This document shows positions 1,452 to 64,000 of a DNA stretch of 64,000 bases, piece after piece (position 1 is the stretch's first letter; each line of letters begins with the position of its first letter). The DNA comes from Prochlorococcus sp. MIT 1341 (lineage in GTDB: Bacteria > Cyanobacteriota > Cyanobacteriia > PCC-6307 > Cyanobiaceae): assembly GCF_034092415.1 (NCBI RefSeq), contig NZ_CP139304.1, positions 124,001-188,000 of the forward strand, given 5' to 3'. Made by a program: the position numbers and the translations under genes. The notes under the pieces were generated by a model. That model had not been told where the DNA came from. It did no database searches and worked only from the letters and a program-made list of their open reading frames with translations.

Positions 1452-3964
1452 CTGGTAATTCCAAGAATTCTCTAGATACGCAACAACTGTGCTCTGTATT
1501 GGATTGGATCAGACTTCTTCAAAAAGCTTTTACACTTGAAGTCGAACAGGGTTTTAACAATCTTCAAGGACGACGGGAGTTCTTTCACGAGTTTGCAGAA
1601 CGACAACTTTTGGAGTTCCAGGAAGTTCCTTTACCTGCAGAAACAAGGGTTCAGTTAAAAGAATTGTCAACACAATTCCATCTTTACCCCGAGAAGAATA
1701 AAACTTCACGAAGGCGATTAATTACTAAATCTCGCTTTGAACTGCATCGCCTTAGCAAACATCTTCAGCCCGAATCCCCAATAGGGCCACCACATATCAG
1801 GCATGCTAAAGAATCTATCTCAAATTTCTCTTCTCATACGAAGTTAAACTCTTCTTTAAGTCTTGAAAGTTTGTTGATAGATGTAAAAGGTGTAGGACCT
1901 AGGTTTGCTGAGAAACTTTCTGCTCTTGGCATTATTTTTATTAAAGATCTTCTGGAATATTACCCACGAGATTATGTTGACTATTCTTCCTTGCGTCGAA
2001 TCTCTGATTTAAGAGTAGGTGAAACATCAACGATAGTGGCTAATGTAAAAAGATCTAATGGTTTTAAGAGTCCTCGTAATCCAAACTTATCAATTCTTGA
2101 ACTTCATTTAGAGGATTTGACTGGCAAGTTAAAGGTCACTCGATTTTTTGCAGGTCGTAGGTTTAGTAGTTATGCCTATATAAAGAGTCAGGCTAATTTA
2201 TATCCTCCAGGTTCAACTGTTGCTGTAAGCGGATTAGTTAAGAGTGGCGATTATGGGGTTAGTTTTCAAGATCCTTTGATTGAAGTCATGGAAAATCCTT
2301 CTTCACCTATTAGATCGCAAAGTATTGGACGTATTTTGTCCGTTTACCCTTTAACGGAAGGACTTAAGGCAGATAAATTTCGCGAGTTAGTTGCAAATGT
2401 GTTGCCTCTGGCAGAAAAGTTTTTAGACCCTCTACCACCCTTTACTTTGAAAGGGCTTAATTTGATGCCAAAAAGCGATGCGATTGTTCAAATCCATAAA
2501 CCAGGATCAACTGATTTATTACAGGCTGCTAGACGAAGGTTGGTTTTTGATGAGTTTTTCTTTCTTCAACTGGGTTTACTCAGGAAACGCTTTGAAATTC
2601 GAACTCGGGAAGCTCCTTCTTTAAGAACTGAACTTCAACAAGGAGGCTTAGTAGAGAAATTTCTTGATCTTTTGCCTTTTTCTTTGACGGGAGCACAAGA
2701 AAGAGTGCTTGCAGAAATTAGCTCAGATGTCTCCAAGTCAGAACCAATGGCGAGATTAATCCAGGGTGATGTTGGAAGTGGAAAGACGGTTGTGGCTATT
2801 GCTTCTCTTTTAAAAGCAGTTGAATCAGGCTGGCAAGGAGCTTTGATGGCACCTACAGAGGTTTTAGCTGATCAACATTATCGATCTCTTTGCAAGTGGC
2901 TACCGCAAATTCATGTGAATGTGGAGTTGCTAACGGGATCTACGCCTCGTTTAAGTAGGCGAAGAATTTTGGAAGATTTAGCGAATGGCTCGATAAAGAT
3001 ACTTGTGGGTACTCATGCTCTTATTGAAGACCCTGTAGTTTTCAACAGATTAGGTTTAGTGGTCGTTGATGAACAACATCGTTTCGGTGTTCATCAGAGA
3101 AACAACTTGCTTGGGAAGGGACTACAGCCACATCTTCTTACTATGACGGCAACACCAATACCTAGAACACTTGCCCTTTCGCTACATGGTGATCTTGATG
3201 TAAGTCAGATTGATGAACTTCCCCCAGGGCGCAAAGCCATTAAAACTTCTCTGCTCAAAGGTTCTGAGAGAAATAGGGCGTATGAACTTATCAGAGAGGG
3301 GGTTGAGAAAGGACAGCGAGCATATGTCGTTTTGCCCCTAGTAAAAGATTCGGAAAAACTTGATCTTCGTTCGGCAGTGATGACTCATCAGGAACTATCT
3401 AAACAAATTTTTCCCGAATTTGAAGTTGGGTTATTGCATGGACGTATGACTAGTGTGGACAAGCAAGAAATTATTCGAAATTTCTCTTCAGGACAGTGTC
3501 AGGTACTTGTTTCTACAACTGTAGTCGAAGTTGGAGTTGATGTGCCAGAAGCGTCAATCATGGTTATTGAACATGCTGAACGCTTTGGCCTGGCACAGCT
3601 GCATCAACTTAGAGGTCGAGTCGGACGCGGATCTTGTTCGTCCTATTGCTTGTTGATTAATGACAGTAAAACACCTCTAGGTAAGGAACGACTTGAAGTT
3701 CTTACTAAATCTAACGATGGATTTGAAATAGCTGAAATCGACCTTCGTCTTAGAGGCCCCGGGCAAATTCTTGGTACTAGACAGTCTGGGTTGCCAGATT
3801 TTGCATTGGCAAGTCTTGTAAAAGATGCAGACGTTTTAAAGCAGGCAAGAGTAGAAGCTATTCGATTATTAAATGAGAGCCCAGATTTAATTTCCAAAGG
3901 TTTGTTGAGGGAAATGCTTGACGAAAACTGGAAGAAATTCAGTGGTAAAGCACATTTAAATTAA
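1421..3964 (+). CDS. recG: ATP-dependent DNA helicase RecG
   Basis: RecG remodels stalled replication forks and branch-migrates Holliday junctions. The 847-residue product is longer than E. coli RecG (693 aa) because of a ~150-residue N-terminal extension before the wedge domain, which begins near residue 151 (DVKGVGPRFAEKL). Superfamily 2 helicase motifs are present: Walker A GDVGSGKT (449-456), motif II DEQH (550-553) followed by RFGV as is usual in RecG, motif III TATPIPRTL, and motif VI QLRGRVGRG. Such N-terminal extensions are familiar in cyanobacterial and plant RecG. The start at ATG 1421 is supported by the AAGGAGG site. Confidence 0.96.
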   Translation: MVGKSSGTELTGNSKNSLDTQQLCSVLDWIRLLQKAFTLEVEQGFNNLQGRREFFHEFAERQLLEFQEVPLPAETRVQLKELSTQFHLYPEKNKTSRRRLITKSRFELHRLSKHLQPESPIGPPHIRHAKESISNFSSHTKLNSSLSLESLLIDVKGVGPRFAEKLSALGIIFIKDLLEYYPRDYVDYSSLRRISDLRVGETSTIVANVKRSNGFKSPRNPNLSILELHLEDLTGKLKVTRFFAGRRFSSYAYIKSQANLYPPGSTVAVSGLVKSGDYGVSFQDPLIEVMENPSSPIRSQSIGRILSVYPLTEGLKADKFRELVANVLPLAEKFLDPLPPFTLKGLNLMPKSDAIVQIHKPGSTDLLQAARRRLVFDEFFFLQLGLLRKRFEIRTREAPSLRTELQQGGLVEKFLDLLPFSLTGAQERVLAEISSDVSKSEPMARLIQGDVGSGKTVVAIASLLKAVESGWQGALMAPTEVLADQHYRSLCKWLPQIHVNVELLTGSTPRLSRRRILEDLANGSIKILVGTHALIEDPVVFNRLGLVVVDEQHRFGVHQRNNLLGKGLQPHLLTMTATPIPRTLALSLHGDLDVSQIDELPPGRKAIKTSLLKGSERNRAYELIREGVEKGQRAYVVLPLVKDSEKLDLRSAVMTHQELSKQIFPEFEVGLLHGRMTSVDKQEIIRNFSSGQCQVLVSTTVVEVGVDVPEASIMVIEHAERFGLAQLHQLRGRVGRGSCSSYCLLINDSKTPLGKERLEVLTKSNDGFEIAEIDLRLRGPGQILGTRQSGLPDFALASLVKDADVLKQARVEAIRLLNESPDLISKGLLREMLDENWKKFSGKAHLN

Positions 3965-4308
3965 AGTAATACTTTTCCACAAACGCTGGTCTCAGATGAG
4001 TCTTAAAAATAGATTTTGGCGTCTTGGTTTCCGCTCTTCCTTCGCGTTGTTCGTTTTCTCTTCAAGTCAGCTATTCCTCTGGTAGATGAACTCGCTATGT
4101 ACAAAAATTTGTATAAAATCTTGCTTTGTCAATGGTTCTTGATCAAAGAATCAAGAAATTGGATTGCTGGTTTTCTTCTCTAAAGCTTTGTAAAATTTCT
4201 TGCTGCTTAGGGCTCTATAGTTTTAAATCGATCCAAATCATTTTTCCTCTGCGAGATCAGACCTGTGGAAAAAATCGAGATATCTGTGGAAATTTTTAAA
4301 TAATTTTC
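3965..4308. other. 344-base intergenic region with DnaA-box-like sites
   Basis: No convincing gene lies here. Two perfect cyanobacterial-type DnaA boxes are visible: TTTTCCACA at 3973-3981 and its inverse TGTGGAAAA at 4264-4272. A third copy with one mismatch, TGTGGAAAT, is at 4285-4293. A 29-codon ORF (3996-4085) has a hydrophobic middle but no ribosome binding site and is probably chance. The downstream end must contain the vanX promoter. Confidence 0.5.
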
Positions 4309-5043
4309 ATGATAAGGCCTTGGGCGACTGTTCCTATCCTTGATAATGGGGAATCTCTTTGTTTGATCCCAAATTCACTCCATCGACTAACCCCGCATCC
4401 ATATGTGGCCTTGGGTGCCCCTTACGTTGATGGAATCGATCCGTTTTGGCTCAGAGAAGGGGTTGTAAGTCGTTTGGTTGCTGCAGAAGATCAACTTCTA
4501 CGTAGTGTTTCGGGATATCGTTTGGCAATATTTGATGCATGGAGACCAATTGCTGTTCAAGCGTTTATGTTTCAACATGCAGTTGATGAGGAGTGCAGGC
4601 TAAAGGGTGTTAGCCAAACTGAGTCAAAAGACTCGCCCAAAATGAGGGCAATTCTTGAGGAAGTCAAGCAGTTTTGGGCTTCTCCATCTGAGGATCCCTC
4701 AACCCCTCCTCCTCATTCCACTGGGGGGGCTGTCGATCTAACTTTGGTTGATTTGCAGGGAAAAGAAGTTGAAATGGGAGGTGAAATTGATGAAATTAGT
4801 GTAATTTCAAAGCCCAATTATTATGCTCTCAAGGCAGAAAAGTATAAAGAATCGGATTTTTTTCGTTGGCATAATAGGAGATTGATTCTAGCTGATGTAA
4901 TGAGAGATTTAGGGTTCGCTCAGCATCCAAATGAATGGTGGCACTTTAGTTATGGAGATCAACTCTGGGCTTGGTCCGAAGGACGCAAAAATGCTGTTTA
5001 TGGTAAATCCAACCCTCCAGAGATTAAATCAAGTACAAATTGA
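4309..5043 (+). CDS. vanX: D-alanyl-D-alanine dipeptidase (VanX/DdpX family)
   Basis: Zinc peptidase of family M15D that hydrolyses D-Ala-D-Ala. The 244-residue protein shows the family motifs: FDAWRP around residue 75, the zinc-binding SxHxxGxAxDL pattern as HSTGGAVDLTL near residue 138, and EWWHF near residue 208 with the catalytic Glu and third zinc ligand. Outside resistance clusters such enzymes are thought to recycle D-Ala from peptidoglycan precursors, and nothing here suggests a glycopeptide-resistance cassette (no vanH or vanA). There is no signal peptide, so it is probably cytoplasmic. Its last 46 bases overlap the end of the convergent sulfite reductase gene. Confidence 0.9.
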   Translation: MIRPWATVPILDNGESLCLIPNSLHRLTPHPYVALGAPYVDGIDPFWLREGVVSRLVAAEDQLLRSVSGYRLAIFDAWRPIAVQAFMFQHAVDEECRLKGVSQTESKDSPKMRAILEEVKQFWASPSEDPSTPPPHSTGGAVDLTLVDLQGKEVEMGGEIDEISVISKPNYYALKAEKYKESDFFRWHNRRLILADVMRDLGFAQHPNEWWHFSYGDQLWAWSEGRKNAVYGKSNPPEIKSSTN

Positions 5044-6815
5044 TCTCCTCTATTACTAATGTGCTTTCCTAGTGAATGCTTTAATCCTGTCTTCTTCCAG
5101 TCCAAAAGTAACGGCTCGATTGTTTTCTCTAAATGGTTTAGTGGCATCTTTTGCAGATATGGTTTTGCAAGTGTTTTTAAATCTGGCGTTCCACCTAGCC
5201 AAAGTTGATATTGATTTACCCCACTTCCTACTAATCCAATTTCGGCCATATATGGACGAGCACAACCATTCGGGCATCCAGTCATACGTATTAGTATTGA
5301 TTTTTCAATCTTTAGCTTCGCAAGTAAAGTCTCTACCCTGTTAAGTACGTTGGGTAGATAACGCTCAGCCTCAGTAATCGCAAGGCCGCATAATGGTAAT
5401 GCAGGACAGGCTATTGCATGTCTTTCAAGTTTTTTAGGGTGTTTGGGATCTTTTATTCCAATCTCATCAAGACTTTTCTTTACGCTAGAAAGTTGTTGTA
5501 CGCCTACATTGCAAAGTAGGAGGTCTTGATTAGGGGTTAGACGTACATCAAGTTGATACGTTTGTATGATCTTATTTAATCCTTTTTTGAGTTCCCCTGA
5601 CAGCCTTCCAGATAAAAGTGGAATACCTACAAACCATCTTTTCCGATCTTGTTTATGCCATCCTAGATAATCCTCTAATTTAGATTCTGGCTCTGGTCTT
5701 ATTTCCTCAAGACCATGCATATAGTATTTTTTGATTTCATTCCTAAACCATCCTATCCCTCTATCATTAATAAGATATTTCATACGTGCATGTCGTCTAT
5801 CCTTTCTATCCCCGTAGTCTCTTTGTAAGGCGAGGATTGACTGAATAAGTTCTAATATGTTTTCTGCTTTTACATACCCTAGAGGATTTGCAATTCTAGC
5901 AAAGGTTTCCTCCTTATTATGAGTTCTTCCCATCCCACCTCCTACATATACGTTGCATCCTTTTAAAAGGCCGTTTGGATTAGTAAAAACAACAATTCCT
6001 ATATCTTGAGTTAAGAGGTCAACAGAGTTATCTCCTTGAACTGTTACGGCACATTTGAATTTCCTTGGAAGATAGGTGCTGCCATAAAGAGGCTCTTTTG
6101 GATCGCCGCTAAAAACAGCAGATTCTTTTTGCTTTATTTCTGCGTTTTTCACCCTTTTACTAGGTTTGATTTTGTAAGCAAGGTCCCCGTCAGCCCAAAG
6201 CTCTAAGTAGGCTTCTTCCGCTGCTTTTGGGCTGAGAAGATCGGCGATATCTTGAGCTAATTTCCTCGCGGCTGGATAAGCTCCTTTCTCGAAAGGCGCC
6301 GCAGGTGCCATAACGTTGCGTGAGATATCACCACAAGCAGCCAATGTTGACCCCATTGAGCATATGACTGTGTTTATAACTTGATGCAGATCGTCTTTAC
6401 GGATTCCATGCATTTGAAAAGCTTGGCGTGTTGTAACCCTCAGGGTCCTGTTGCCCAGCTTCTCAGATAGTGAATCAAGCGCATTGAAAAGATCAGGTGA
6501 AACGCGACCGCCAGGACTTCGAAGACGAAGCATCATTTGCCAGTCTTTTTCTTTCCCTTTTTCTCTTTTGTCACGATTGTCTTGTTGATAGCTTCCGTGA
6601 AACTTTAATAGCTGTAAAGCATCATTAGAAAAGTGGTTGCTATCGTTTTTAAGCTCGGTAAATAGTGGCTCGCGTAGATAGTCGCTATTTTCTTTAAAAT
6701 TTTCAAATTTGTTTGGCTCTCCACCAAGTGCAATGCATGGTGAAAATCCTCTATCCATGTTTTCCTTTGTGGATGTTTCGCCTTCTTTCACGGCTTTAAA
6801 TCGCTCCTCGGCCAC
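4998..6815 (-). CDS. sir: Ferredoxin-dependent sulfite reductase
   Basis: Reduces sulfite to sulfide with six electrons from ferredoxin, in assimilatory sulfate reduction. The 605-residue protein has the siroheme/[4Fe-4S] cysteine signatures of the nitrite/sulfite reductase family: ACPALPLCGLA followed ~40 residues later by TGCPNGCARPYMAE, the form typical of plant and cyanobacterial sulfite reductase. Upstream are the two ferredoxin-like half domains, with RVTTRQAFQMHGI near residue 105. The start used is GTG 6815-6813. The gene diverges from glyS (69 bases between starts) and its 3' end overlaps vanX by 46 bases. Confidence 0.95.
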   Translation of the reverse strand: MAEERFKAVKEGETSTKENMDRGFSPCIALGGEPNKFENFKENSDYLREPLFTELKNDSNHFSNDALQLLKFHGSYQQDNRDKREKGKEKDWQMMLRLRSPGGRVSPDLFNALDSLSEKLGNRTLRVTTRQAFQMHGIRKDDLHQVINTVICSMGSTLAACGDISRNVMAPAAPFEKGAYPAARKLAQDIADLLSPKAAEEAYLELWADGDLAYKIKPSKRVKNAEIKQKESAVFSGDPKEPLYGSTYLPRKFKCAVTVQGDNSVDLLTQDIGIVVFTNPNGLLKGCNVYVGGGMGRTHNKEETFARIANPLGYVKAENILELIQSILALQRDYGDRKDRRHARMKYLINDRGIGWFRNEIKKYYMHGLEEIRPEPESKLEDYLGWHKQDRKRWFVGIPLLSGRLSGELKKGLNKIIQTYQLDVRLTPNQDLLLCNVGVQQLSSVKKSLDEIGIKDPKHPKKLERHAIACPALPLCGLAITEAERYLPNVLNRVETLLAKLKIEKSILIRMTGCPNGCARPYMAEIGLVGSGVNQYQLWLGGTPDLKTLAKPYLQKMPLNHLEKTIEPLLLDWKKTGLKHSLGKHISNRGDQFVLDLISGGLDLP

Positions 6816-57352: not shown

Positions 57353-57946
57353 TCAGGCTGCAAGTGGCGAATTTTCAACAAGTTTTGGAGCTAAACGTAG
57401 AATTTGCTCTCCGCTAGGAATATTCAATAACTCAGCAGAACGCAATCGAGATATCAGGCGAGTAGAAGTTACTCGAGTGGAGCCAATAAGTTCCCCAATC
57501 CTTTCATGGGTTAATCGAAATGGGAGGTCACACCAATTTCCACATCTACGGCCTAGACGATTTACCAGAAGAGCTAAAAGCGCTTGCAAACGTTGTTCTG
57601 CACTGCCAAGGTGACGGATACGAAGCAATTGCAAAGTCCATTCATTGACTGCATCGAAACCAATTTCGTCAGTATTCTCAGAGTTTCGTTTAAAAGAAAA
57701 AGTCGTCAAGGCTTCAAGGCATACTCCTTCACTGCAGAGTCTGTCCGTTCTAAGTAAGTCACCAGCCTGTAGAAAGGCCAATGTCATGCCTTCTGTTTCT
57801 TGGCAAGGACAATAGACTCGAGCGACTCCTTCAAGCACTTCAAGGCAACTAATTCTATTAGAGGAGGCTGGATCTAATAGAATTGTTTGTCCAGTAGGCA
57901 TTCTTATGCTGCTTATTGGATCGTCTGGGAGATAACGGAAGCTCAT
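57353..57946 (-). CDS. Crp/Fnr-family transcriptional regulator
   Basis: A 197-residue regulator. The N-terminal ~110 residues form a cNMP-binding-like beta barrel (RMPTGQTILLDPASSNRISC, LEGVARVYCPC, FLQAGDLLRTD) without the cAMP phosphate-binding residues, so the effector is different or absent. The C-terminal winged helix is clear: RLTHERIGELIGSTRVTSTR with a recognition helix resembling NtcA (GSTRVTxTR). It is shorter than NtcA (~220 aa) and looks like a paralogue. Position beside ferritin suggests control of iron or redox genes. Inverted TTGAGA repeats lie upstream. Confidence 0.86.
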   Translation of the reverse strand: MSFRYLPDDPISSIRMPTGQTILLDPASSNRISCLEVLEGVARVYCPCQETEGMTLAFLQAGDLLRTDRLCSEGVCLEALTTFSFKRNSENTDEIGFDAVNEWTLQLLRIRHLGSAEQRLQALLALLVNRLGRRCGNWCDLPFRLTHERIGELIGSTRVTSTRLISRLRSAELLNIPSGEQILRLAPKLVENSPLAA

Positions 57947-59890: not shown

Positions 59891-61225
59891 TTATAGAAAA
59901 AGTGCCAACAGGCCAATGGGTACCAATAATCTGGCTATTAGGTTTAGGGTTATCGATCGATTGTTTTTGTGCATGAGTGTTTTGTTTTCTGGTGGGTAAG
60001 CCATTGGCATATCTAGATGAACTTTATTAGTATCTGCATTTGTAGGATGAAGGTCCCAGGGACGTTCATTATTTAAAGAGTTGTTAAACCAATCCCAATA
60101 GTATTGAATCATCTTGTCTTCTCCTAATAGCTTTACATTGTCTTTTTGTATATAGCCCATTTGCTCGTTAAATGTTTGTGTTTTTAGCACGAGATAGTCT
60201 TCGCAAAATATTTTATAGAAGATTCTTTGTTGAAGCTGTCTAAATAAAATTAGTTTTGTAATTAACTTGTTTTTCATAAATTTTCTGTAGTGCCTGACGA
60301 TTACTCTTGATCTGTTTTTAGCTAAAGGTATATGGTCGAGAACTTGTATATATCTTGCAGTTTCTGGGGTTCCTTTGTAGATACATATTCTACCTGGTGG
60401 AATAAATTTAATTGTAATAAACTCACCCTTTTCCTTTTCTTTATGGTTATATTTGCTTTCAATATGTCTACCATCTCGAGTTATATTTTGATGAAAACTC
60501 GTTATTACTTCTCGATTGACATCCTTATCTGGAATAGTATCACCATGTATCCAGAAAATATGTAAAATGTCTAGGTGATTCTCAATAATTCTTGCCCAAT
60601 CACACTTGAAGTCTACGCAAACCTCTTCATAGGCATAATCACTTGGCTTGAAGCCATATGACTCTGGTAATGTATTATCCAGAGAAGATTTGATTTCTAT
60701 TTCAGATAGATCTGTCTTAGCTTTTCCTCCATAATATATATACAGATAACCATCTTTTTCGATGCAGGGATATTGGTATAAATGAATTCTTTTTGCATAG
60801 TTATTGTAATTAGAGTCAATAATATGCTGACAGGTGATTCTATCTAAATTTGTACAATTGCCTTCTGCGGAAAATCGACCGCCATGGTAAGGGCATACGA
60901 TTTCACCATCTTTAATGCCGCCGCCTTGAAAGGAAGCTCCTCGATGAGGGCAAAGGTTCTTAATGCACCTGACCCTCTTGTCTTTATCCCTATATAGGAC
61001 AAGAGGCTCGTTGTACATACTAAAAAAATGCAGTTTATCTTCTTTTAAATCCTTAGTGGTGCAAATAGCGTACCAACCTAATAACCCGTTGGATAGTTGT
61101 CCAGAGGGTTTATTTGAGGTGTTCTTTTCAGTGATGACGGAAGAGTCATTTGAGGTTATGTCATTCTTCGGCAAGCCACTAGGCCAACTAAGTGATGAAG
61201 TTGTGGTGAGCCCAGTTTCACTCAT
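59891..61225 (-). CDS. Rieske non-heme iron oxygenase, candidate chlorophyllide a oxygenase
   Basis: A 444-residue oxygenase of the pheophorbide a oxygenase/CAO type. The Rieske [2Fe-2S] ligands are Cys92 and His94 (LCPHRGASF) and Cys111 and His114 (CPYHGGRF). The mononuclear iron motif is D219-x2-H222-x4-H227 in ENHLDILHIFWIH. A C-terminal hydrophobic anchor (LIARLLVPIGLLALFL) tethers it to the membrane. In Prochlorococcus a divergent Rieske protein makes chlorophyll b; this gene is a good candidate, but other Rieske oxygenases exist. An N-terminal Ser/Thr-rich stretch (1-45) precedes the core. Confidence 0.82.
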   Translation of the reverse strand: MSETGLTTTSSLSWPSGLPKNDITSNDSSVITEKNTSNKPSGQLSNGLLGWYAICTTKDLKEDKLHFFSMYNEPLVLYRDKDKRVRCIKNLCPHRGASFQGGGIKDGEIVCPYHGGRFSAEGNCTNLDRITCQHIIDSNYNNYAKRIHLYQYPCIEKDGYLYIYYGGKAKTDLSEIEIKSSLDNTLPESYGFKPSDYAYEEVCVDFKCDWARIIENHLDILHIFWIHGDTIPDKDVNREVITSFHQNITRDGRHIESKYNHKEKEKGEFITIKFIPPGRICIYKGTPETARYIQVLDHIPLAKNRSRVIVRHYRKFMKNKLITKLILFRQLQQRIFYKIFCEDYLVLKTQTFNEQMGYIQKDNVKLLGEDKMIQYYWDWFNNSLNNERPWDLHPTNADTNKVHLDMPMAYPPENKTLMHKNNRSITLNLIARLLVPIGLLALFL

Positions 61226-61527
61226 GGCTTATTTTGCCTTTTTTTCAGTAAATAACTGTCTTTTGATCTGACAATACTAAGCCATGTTGTCTTTTGTTCC
61301 CCGGTGGTTGTAAATCTCTAGGTTCAGTTGACTTGATTTTTTGAGTGGATTTATAAATGAAAAAAGGTTTCTTTGATACGAAATATGCAGCTTTTTTGCA
61401 TTGCTGTCTAACTGGTAGGCTATTTGTGGTAAGGGTTGTTTTATTGTCAAGGTTTGTTTATTAGACTAGGGGTTATATCCTTTGGAATGACTCTTTTTAT
61501 TGCCGGTTTTGAGCAGGGAAAGTTTTT
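61226..61527. other. 302-base divergent intergenic region
   Basis: It separates the Rieske gene (minus) from the ABC exporter (plus) and must hold both promoters. A 35-codon frame (61357-61464) has no ribosome binding site and I do not call it. No strong hairpin or palindrome was seen. Confidence 0.4.
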
Positions 61528-62511
61528 ATGGCTTTAGTTAAAGCGAAAGATCTATGTAAAAGTTATCGGGTTTCAGTAAAAACACCTGGTATATCAGGAG
61601 CATTATCAAATTTTTTCAATAGGAAGTTTCAAACTGTCCAAGCGGTTAGGAATGTGAGCTTTCAGATAAATCGTGGTGAAATGGTTGGGTTTATTGGCCC
61701 AAATGGGGCAGGTAAAACCACTACCTTGAAAATGTTGTGCGGGCTAATTTGTCCAACAAGTGGTGAAGTCATTGTTGGGGGTAAGAAACCATTCGCTAGA
61801 GATAAAGAATTTCTTCGTCAAATAACATTGGTGATGGGACAGAAGCAACAGCTGATTTGGGATTTGCCCCCATTAGACTCCTTGTATGTAAATGCTGCCG
61901 TCTACGGAATAAACAGAACAGAGGCCAAAGAGCGTATAAAAGAACTTTCTTCAATGTTGGAATTGGACGAAGAACTTACACGCCCTGTTAGAAAGCTTTC
62001 ACTTGGGCAAAGGATGAAGGCCGAGCTTTTAGCCTCTCTTTTGCATCGCCCTTCTGTCCTCTTTTTAGATGAACCTACCTTGGGCTTAGATGTAAATGCT
62101 CAGGCTAGGGTACGCAAGTTTTTAGCTGATTACAATAAAAAATATGGAGCAACGGTTCTACTTACAAGTCACTATATGGCCGATATCACCTCACTATGTT
62201 CTAGAGTTATGTTGATTCATAAGGGTTCATTGTTTCATGATGGATCCCTAGAGTCTCTTACTGAAAGACTTACACCTTATAGATCAGTAAAAATAGCCTT
62301 TAAAGAACCTCAGGAGCATCATTTGTTGAAAAAATTTGGAGAATTAGAAGAGTGTGATGGTTACCTTGCGCGGATCCTGATTCCCAGGGAAAAACTAACA
62401 AATTCAGTTTCGTCAATACTTAATAATTTTCCTGTTAAGGACCTTGAAATAGGAGACCCTCCTATTGAGGAACTAATTGGTAAACTTTTCCAATCTGGCA
62501 AAGTACAATAA
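61528..62511 (+). CDS. ABC-2-type exporter ATPase (viologen-exporter-like)
   Basis: A 327-residue ATPase of the COG4586 group. Walker A is GFIGPNGAGKTTTLKMLCGL near residue 60, the Q-loop region contains VMGQKQQLIWDLPP (a hallmark of this group), the signature is LSLGQRMKAELLASLLH and Walker B is VLFLDEPTLGLDVNAQ. The C-terminal ~80 residues form an extra beta domain. In Synechocystis such an ATPase works with two unequal permeases to export viologens; the natural substrate is unknown. The stop overlaps the next start by one base. Confidence 0.85.
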   Translation: MALVKAKDLCKSYRVSVKTPGISGALSNFFNRKFQTVQAVRNVSFQINRGEMVGFIGPNGAGKTTTLKMLCGLICPTSGEVIVGGKKPFARDKEFLRQITLVMGQKQQLIWDLPPLDSLYVNAAVYGINRTEAKERIKELSSMLELDEELTRPVRKLSLGQRMKAELLASLLHRPSVLFLDEPTLGLDVNAQARVRKFLADYNKKYGATVLLTSHYMADITSLCSRVMLIHKGSLFHDGSLESLTERLTPYRSVKIAFKEPQEHHLLKKFGELEECDGYLARILIPREKLTNSVSSILNNFPVKDLEIGDPPIEELIGKLFQSGKVQ

Positions 62512-63329
62512 TGATTAAATATTTTCGGAAAAAATTCCCTCTAAGAAATATTTTCCAGATTGCATATACATTGTTAAGTACACAATATGCACTTATGGTG
62601 GAATATCGGGCCGAAATTGTACTTTGGGCAGTTTCTGGTATTTTACCTCTAATAATGTTATCGATTTGGAGTGGTTCCCAAGCTCTTGTAATTGCAGGAA
62701 TTACTACAGAGGAAATAACCCGTTACTTTATAAGTGCTTTTGTAGTGCGTCAATTCACTGCTGTTTGGGTAATGGTGACTTTCGAAGAAGATTATGTTGA
62801 AGGTAAATTGTCTCCATATTTGTTGCAGCCCTTAACACCATTTTGGAGATACCTTTCCTCACATCTTGCTGAACAAATCACACGCATACCTATAGTCATA
62901 ATTATGCTTATTTTTGTCTTTTCACTTCTTCCTAAGGCTTTTTTTATACCTAACTTAAGTGATCTTGCTTTGGGAATTTTAATCATATTTATAGCTTTCC
63001 TGGTACGTTTTCTCTTGCATTGGACTTTTGCAATGCTTTGTTTTTGGAATGAACGATCAGCAGCTTTTGAGAGGGTTTTGCTTATACCATATATTTTTCT
63101 CTCTGGTATGGTTGCTCCTTTGGATACCTTCCCAGAACAGATTAAATCAATTGTTATGTTGACACCCTTTCCTTATTTTTTATATTTCCCTGCTCGCATT
63201 CTTTCTGGATCAAACATTGATGTTTTCAATGTGTTCCTAACGCTTATTGTATGGGGATTTATATTATTTCTATGTAGTCTTATTGCATGGAGACGAGGTA
63301 TTAAACATTACTCTGCAATGGGGGCATAG
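62511..63329 (+). CDS. ABC-2-type exporter permease, first subunit
   Basis: A 272-residue membrane protein (COG4587 group) with six hydrophobic segments. Characteristic parts are VEYRAEIVLWAVSGILPLIML near residue 30, VEGKLSPYLLQPLTPFWRYLSSH near 100 and LIPYIFLSGMVAPLDTFPEQ near 195; the last is typical of ABC-2 exporters. It starts at ATG 62511, overlapping the ATPase stop, and is followed 9 bases later by the second permease, so the three form one transporter operon. Confidence 0.85.
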   Translation: MIKYFRKKFPLRNIFQIAYTLLSTQYALMVEYRAEIVLWAVSGILPLIMLSIWSGSQALVIAGITTEEITRYFISAFVVRQFTAVWVMVTFEEDYVEGKLSPYLLQPLTPFWRYLSSHLAEQITRIPIVIIMLIFVFSLLPKAFFIPNLSDLALGILIIFIAFLVRFLLHWTFAMLCFWNERSAAFERVLLIPYIFLSGMVAPLDTFPEQIKSIVMLTPFPYFLYFPARILSGSNIDVFNVFLTLIVWGFILFLCSLIAWRRGIKHYSAMGA

Positions 63330-63338
63330 ATATATTAA

Positions 63339-64000
63339 ATGGTCAAGATCTTGAATTTTTATTTTAACATTATAAGATACTTTTGGTTAACTGCGATCGC
63401 AACCGAGTTGGAATATAGCTTTAATTTTTTTGTTGAACTAGTAGCAGTAATAGCCAACCTTTTTGGAAGTATTTTCTTATTATCGTTATTCTATACACCT
63501 TACTCTAATTTAGGAGGTTGGAGTTGGGATGAATCATTACTAGTGTTAGGGATTTATACCTTCTTAGAAGGTATAACAACCTCGATTCTACAGCCAAACC
63601 TTAGTAAGATTGTCCAGCATGTTCAAAATGGTACGCTTGATTTTGTACTTCTAAAGCCTATAGATAGTCAAATCTGGTTGTCTTTAAGAATGTTTTCTCC
63701 CTGGGGATTCCCTTCAGTTCTTTGTGGAGTATCTCTGGTTTTATTTTCACTTTTCAGATCTTCCTTTCATATCAATATATTTTCTGGTTTATTGTTTTTG
63801 TCGACGATCATCTCTAGTTTGTTGATTCTGTATAGCTTATGGTTTTTGCTAGCCACTACTAGTATTTGGTTTGTAAGGATTTGGAACGCTACCGAGGTAC
63901 TTAGGTCTATTTTAGTGGCAGGCCGTTATCCAGTCTCTTCTTATCCATATGTTTTGCGTACGATCTTTACCTTTATATTGCCTATAGCGTTTTTAACAAC
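63339..64000 (+). CDS. ABC-2-type exporter permease, second subunit (partial)
   Basis: Starts at ATG 63339 and runs open to the window end, so only the first ~220 residues are seen. It belongs to the COG3694 group, partner of the first permease: LNFYFNIIRYFWLTAIATEL, then ELVAVIANLFGSIFLLSLFY and the conserved loop KIVQHVQNGTLDFVLLKPID (near residue 105). About five hydrophobic segments are visible before the cut. A complete gene of this type is usually ~260 aa. Confidence 0.85.
   Translation, partial: MVKILNFYFNIIRYFWLTAIATELEYSFNFFVELVAVIANLFGSIFLLSLFYTPYSNLGGWSWDESLLVLGIYTFLEGITTSILQPNLSKIVQHVQNGTLDFVLLKPIDSQIWLSLRMFSPWGFPSVLCGVSLVLFSLFRSSFHINIFSGLLFLSTIISSLLILYSLWFLLATTSIWFVRIWNATEVLRSILVAGRYPVSSYPYVLRTIFTFILPIAFLT

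What the first reader, a model, noticed from the sequence alone, without database searches (positions are those of the whole stretch)
59891..61225. Rieske oxygenase that may make chlorophyll b
Prochlorococcus uses divinyl chlorophyll b, and a divergent Rieske protein with little similarity to plant CAO has been proposed as its chlorophyllide a oxygenase. This protein has both iron motifs intact, a membrane anchor and no plant-type regulatory A domain. Location in a ferritin-containing region is also suggestive.
Basis: partly seen in the sequence, partly recalled or inferred. Interest (0 to 1): 0.55.

Follow-up and report, generated by a model that had tools for sequence, protein, structure and literature searches.

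The report
Prochlorococcus chlorophyll b enzyme (PcCAO)
This gene is very probably the already described Prochlorococcus enzyme that converts the chlorophyll a precursor into the chlorophyll b precursor, so it is an expected gene here and not a discovery.

Summary
Window 59891-61225 (-) is an intact 444-aa Rieske non-haem iron oxygenase with both iron sites and a hydrophobic C-terminal tail. The genome length (1,937,096 bp) equals that printed for Prochlorococcus MIT1341xe (LLVII; PMC11559063). The genome has only two Rieske proteins: this one and PetC. Orthologues (55-76% identity) occur in 92 of 300 family genomes; their genera do not overlap with those holding PF04432 (BciB-type vinyl reductase family). 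All 80 named loci read are Prochlorococcus or loosely named picocyanobacterial single cells or bins. [quoted passage not shown] The relative MIT1300xe, which has an orthologue, makes chlorophyll b2 by published HPLC. The ferritin neighbourhood adds nothing. The chemistry is inferred, not shown here. Mildly open: the origin of the clade, and why MIT1223 has an intact copy but very little chlorophyll b2.

The parts
59891..61225 (-). PcCAO-type Rieske oxygenase gene, 444 codons plus stop
60884..60952 (-). Rieske [2Fe-2S] ligands, residues C92 to H114
   Evidence: sequence; invariant in 17 aligned rows and in 80 of 80 named orthologues
60545..60583 (-). mononuclear iron motif, residues E215 to H227 (E-N-x2-D-x2-H-x4-H)
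   Evidence: invariant in 80 of 80
60197..60199 (-). candidate third iron ligand D343 (assignment by analogy with the family)
   Evidence: invariant in 80 of 80; not proven by structure, as this region of the model has pLDDT below 50
59894..59953 (-). hydrophobic C-terminal tail, residues 425-444, possible membrane attachment
   Evidence: hydropathy

Best explanation
The gene encodes PcCAO, the chlorophyllide a oxygenase of Prochlorococcus. It would take electrons from reduced ferredoxin into its Rieske cluster, pass them to the mononuclear iron of the neighbouring subunit of a trimer, and use O2 twice at the C7 methyl of 8-vinyl chlorophyllide a, through a 7-hydroxymethyl intermediate, to give 8-vinyl chlorophyllide b, the precursor of the chlorophyll b2 bound by the Pcb antenna. 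Shown here: the gene, iron-site residues, orthology, distribution and fold class. Inferred: substrate, reaction, electron donor, trimer and membrane attachment.
For: Only non-PetC Rieske protein of the genome; exactly two Rieske proteins in 23 of 23 orthologue-bearing genomes of at least 99% completeness in the 151-genome sample (one search read). Orthologues in 92 of 300 family genomes with a wide gap to the next matches; 27 of 386 phylum genomes, all in the own family. Genera with the orthologue and genera with PF04432 are disjoint. Of 40 chosen genomes, 15 holders have 0-2 phycobiliprotein genes and none of 14 genomes with 9-15 holds it. [quoted passage not shown] MIT1300xe, whose genome length equals that of G058, contains chlorophyll b2 by HPLC (PMC11559063 passages) and G058 has a 74% identical orthologue. 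Fold like trimeric Rieske monooxygenases.
Against: No activity test. No direct comparison with the sequence of Satoh and Tanaka or with plant, Prochlorothrix or Prochloron CAO. PaO/CAO-type Pfam model not reached (21 bits against 27). 11 Prochlorococcus-like draft genomes lack it; most also lack the flanking genes, which suggests gaps, but G031 (94% complete, same genus) is not settled. MIT1223 has an intact orthologue but the lowest chlorophyll b2 of four strains.
Confidence: 0.93

Rival explanations
1. It is a Rieske oxygenase acting on another small molecule (for example a carotenoid, sterol-like or aromatic compound) that happens to be conserved in Prochlorococcus.
For: The best NCBIfam model is 4beta-methylsterol monooxygenase, though at 69 bits against a cut-off of 600; nearest solved folds are dicamba, carbazole and saxitoxin-type Rieske enzymes.
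Against: These are general family resemblances at 12-19% identity. The pairing with the phycobilisome-poor genomes and the lack of any other candidate Rieske oxygenase argue against it.
Confidence: 0.05
2. It is the Prochlorococcus version of the PaO-type Rieske gene (pheophorbide oxygenase-like) that Synechococcus-type genomes carry, and serves chlorophyll breakdown.
For: Similar length, weak PaO match, 20-25% identity to the Synechococcus PaO proteins over about 300 residues; Prochlorococcus genomes appear to lack a PaO gene of their own.
Against: PcCAO rows form their own clade outside the PaO clade that holds the Synechococcus genes (SH-aLRT 100 and 99); holding them together is rejected with p-AU 0.018 (long branches, and the grouping was named after the tree was seen).
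Confidence: 0.02

Closest known systems
[quoted passage not shown]
   Same: Host genus, restriction to Prochlorococcus, Rieske oxygenase (the last from the finding and recall, as the paper is not held), only candidate in the genome.
   Different: Nothing found; this is the copy of strain MIT1341, with orthologues at 55-76% identity in other lineages.
Chlorophyllide a oxygenase (CAO) of plants, green algae, Prochlorothrix and Prochloron
   Same: Rieske and mononuclear iron motifs; presumed reaction.
   Different: No plant-type A domain; PaO-family Pfam model not reached. Sequence relation to named CAOs not tested. In Acaryochloris RCC1774 a CAO 63-66% identical to those of Prochloron and Prochlorothrix is reported (PMC6002478 passage), so that lineage looks separate.
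PaO-family Rieske proteins of Synechococcus and other cyanobacteria
   Same: Length about 440-490 aa, same two iron motifs.
   Different: Different clade; iron motif of the ENV(A/L)D(P/V)SHVPF(A/T)H type against ENHLDILHIFW(I/V)H here.
Dicamba monooxygenase (DdmC) and other trimeric Rieske monooxygenases
   Same: Fold: Z 25.5, rmsd 3.3 A over 311 residues.
   Different: 15-16% identity, other substrates, and a longer C-terminal part here.

Membership tests
Rieske non-haem iron oxygenase | C-x-H ... C-x2-H Rieske motif | tested here: met
   C92, H94, C111, H114
Rieske non-haem iron oxygenase | mononuclear iron facial triad, two His and one Asp, with bridging Asp | tested here: met
   D219, H222, H227 and candidate D343 invariant in 80 of 80 named orthologues; D343 as ligand is by analogy
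Rieske non-haem iron oxygenase | fold of the family | tested here: met
   model of mean pLDDT 68.6 matches trimeric Rieske oxygenases, Z up to 25.5
PcCAO (Prochlorococcus-type CAO) | gene conserved in Prochlorococcus and absent from Synechococcus-type relatives | tested here: met
   11 draft exceptions told in the report
PcCAO (Prochlorococcus-type CAO) | orthology to the published PcCao sequence | not tested
   Satoh and Tanaka 2006 not held; no accession available. Supported indirectly, as the genome has no other non-PetC Rieske protein
PcCAO (Prochlorococcus-type CAO) | makes chlorophyll b from chlorophyllide a | not testable with these tools
   needs expression and pigment analysis
PaO/CAO Pfam family PF08417 | score over the curated cut-off of 27 bits | tested here: not met
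   21 bits; Synechococcus-type PaO proteins score about 78-96 bits
Plant-type CAO | N-terminal regulatory A domain | tested here: not met
   Rieske domain begins near residue 51; preceding residues unconserved and modelled at very low confidence
Plant-type CAO | sequence clade with named plant, Prochlorothrix or Prochloron CAO | not tested
   no named CAO sequence was available in the collections used

The most novel reading that the evidence does not exclude
PcCAO is a separate invention of chlorophyll b synthesis: a Rieske oxygenase from outside the PaO/CAO lineage that took over C7 oxidation when phycobilisomes were given up, while the PaO-type Rieske gene of the Synechococcus-like ancestor was lost. 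A side reading is that level or activity of the enzyme, not its presence, sets chlorophyll b2, since MIT1223 keeps an intact copy but has very little of the pigment.
Probability: 0.45. Interest if true: 0.4.

Novelty: already known. Interest (0 to 1): 0.15.

Why it matters
Chlorophyll b2 helps Prochlorococcus harvest blue light at depth, so its synthase is an important gene, but it has had a name and an assigned function in print since 2006.

Tried and rejected
Considered and rejected: (1) a Synechococcus-universal orthologue; rejected. (2) Phage carriage: no relative in IMG/VR with the single protein or the alignment; among phage records only six Acinetobacter phage records with kshA-type Rieske proteins at 20-25% identity. 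Both viral scans warn that records near the own genome may be left out. (3) Ferritin neighbourhood as functional evidence: neighbouring genes differ between loci, and the MIT 0701 and AG-412-I05 loci show none of the nine window genes sought except PcCAO itself within 4 kb. (4) True loss in draft genomes: 11 Prochlorococcus-like drafts lack the gene. In G021 the contig ends 673 bases beyond the AhpC/TSA gene; G027 has the ABC genes in another setting; G031 and eight others lack both flanking genes sought. A gap is likely but not proven. (5) A shared place of the PaO gene and PcCAO beside one ABC operon: seen on the PaO side in 3 of 4 g45 genomes (the fourth has no such operon match) and in none of the other Synechococcus-type genomes (G005 has both on one contig, about 23 kb apart), so I treat it as lineage-specific. 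(6) A solved CAO structure: no chain so named among the sequence matches or fold matches shown. The model is of middling confidence (mean pLDDT 68.6, 17 sequences); segments 223-240 and 342-368 in tool numbering, which hold parts of the iron site, are below 50. Note that the reference used for the protein lacks Met1, so residue numbers in tool outputs are one lower than mine.

Tree bookkeeping: 80 rows were extracted (69, 11); 15 were dropped by hand before the tree as redundant, leaving 65. Quick method, SH-aLRT only, no bootstrap; the program warned of long branches meeting and of unlike letter make-up. L063/L232-type rows (G071) start at an internal Met.

Papers: PMC3441193, PMC12629889, PMC3724816, PMC13297055, PMC7242693, PMC2823733, PMC6002478, PMC4500134, PMC8392590, PMC2435540, PMC4762379 and PMC11559063 were seen as found passages only; all others as search listings. 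Satoh and Tanaka 2006 and Ito and Tanaka 2011 were not seen. That the 2006 gene was shown to work by expression in a cyanobacterium is my recollection and is not relied on.

Full report
What is there. The window holds an intact gene of 444 codons at 59891-61225 on the minus strand. It encodes a Rieske oxygenase: Pfam Rieske 78.2 bits, a weak VanA-type C-terminal match, and a PaO match below cut-off. The cluster ligands C92, H94, C111, H114 and the iron-site residues E215, N216, D219, H222 and H227 are present; with D343 they are invariant in 17 aligned orthologues and in 80 of 80 named ones. The C-terminus is hydrophobic; the N-terminus is short and unconserved.

Whose genome. The window lies in a single-contig genome of 1,937,096 bases. 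PMC11559063 (passages) lists Prochlorococcus MIT1341xe, LLVII grade, with exactly that length. The contig lengths of G003, G058 and G052 (1,795,922, 1,855,146 and 2,032,419) equal those printed for MIT1223, MIT1300xe and MIT1307xe. The genome has 11 PF00421 match rows at 9 places plus 2 fragments, against 2 to 4 rows in three Synechococcus-type genomes, and 2 phycobiliprotein genes.

How many candidates. Pfam Rieske finds two proteins in this genome. The second is PetC, beside cytochrome f (named from its sequence). In the 151-genome sample, 23 of 23 orthologue-bearing genomes of at least 99% completeness have exactly two (one search read). So if these cells make chlorophyll b with a Rieske enzyme, this is the only candidate.

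Distribution. In 300 family genomes, 92 have a strong match (4e-57 or better, counted from the printed table, the own genome included); the other matches begin at 7e-22 with about 30% identity over the Rieske part. In 386 phylum genomes there are 27 orthologues, all in the own family; the next best match is 3e-24. A named scan found 235 relatives among 243 pattern matches. The best 80 were listed: 77 are titled Prochlorococcus, two are 'Synechococcaceae' records (AG-439-B13, AG-349-K03) and one is an 'uncultured cyanobacterium' bin; 155 relatives were not listed. PF04432 is in 133 of 300 genomes and absent from the own genome; the 18 genera with it and the 27 genera with the orthologue do not overlap (one search read). 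In 40 chosen genomes, 15 holders have 0-2 phycobiliprotein genes, 14 genomes with 9-15 have no orthologue, and 11 have 0-2 and no orthologue. Those 11 are drafts of 53-94% completeness, and 9 of them gave no match to either flanking gene sought, which suggests gaps. G031, same genus and 94% complete, is the least comfortable case.

Synechococcus-type genomes do carry a Rieske protein of similar size, but it belongs to the PaO family (about 78-96 bits). In a 65-row tree the 13 PcCAO rows form one clade (support 100) on a stem of 3.5 changes per column, outside a PaO clade that includes the Synechococcus genes (support 99). Holding PcCAO together with the Synechococcus genes costs 35.7 log units, p-AU 0.018. 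The long stem leaves the exact place of PcCAO unsure; the separation from the Synechococcus gene is fairly clear.

Mechanism. The model (mean pLDDT 68.6) matches dicamba monooxygenase with Z 25.5 over 311 residues, and other Rieske oxygenases. A 2026 review describes CAO as using reduced ferredoxin and carrying out two successive monooxygenations at the C7 methyl through a 7-hydroxymethyl intermediate, with electrons passing between subunits in a predicted trimer (PMC13297055 passages). I infer the same scheme here on the 8-vinyl substrate. None of it was tested.

What is known. [quoted passage not shown] The original is not held. PMC11559063 (passages) reports by HPLC-MS that MIT1327 and MIT1300xe contain 4-39% chlorophyll b2 and that MIT1223 has the lowest chlorophyll b2 values of four strains. 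The genome with the length of MIT1300xe (G058) has an orthologue at 74% identity. The genome with the length of MIT1223 (G003, locus L058) has an intact orthologue at 64% with all ligands, so the low pigment there is not explained by loss of the gene.

Neighbourhood. The gene lies between an AhpC/TSA-like gene with a small ORF on one side and an ABC exporter operon on the other. This order is kept in near relatives, but other loci have other neighbours. The ferritin, about 3 kb away, is shared with some loci and missing around others, so it says little about function.

Verdict. The finding is right and ordinary: an orthologue of a known gene. Open but modest: whether PcCAO arose separately from other CAOs, and what holds chlorophyll b2 low in MIT1223.

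Noticed in passing
own genome G000 and relatives; Synechococcus-type genomes: Synechococcus-type genomes with a PaO match each carry a PaO-family Rieske protein of about 440-590 aa open frame, while Prochlorococcus genomes seem to lack it: complete ones hold only PetC and PcCAO.
   Followed up: partly
L227 (G045) 2478-6247; window 59891-63998: In three g45 genomes the PaO gene sits directly after the ABC exporter operon whose orthologue lies beside PcCAO in the window; not seen in the other Synechococcus-type genomes compared.
   Followed up: partly
locus L058 (G003, length of MIT1223): Intact PcCAO with all iron ligands in the genome whose length equals that of MIT1223, a strain reported to have the lowest chlorophyll b2 of four.
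   Followed up: no
L074 (G209, G209:C1:60700-63000): The PcCAO copy in this draft is broken into two overlapping pieces with stops inside; may be a sequencing error or a decayed gene.
   Followed up: no
window 57353-57946 (-): CRP-family regulator gene near PcCAO, with a same-family gene also within 4 kb of PcCAO in many other loci, including MIT 9107 at 69% identity.
   Followed up: no
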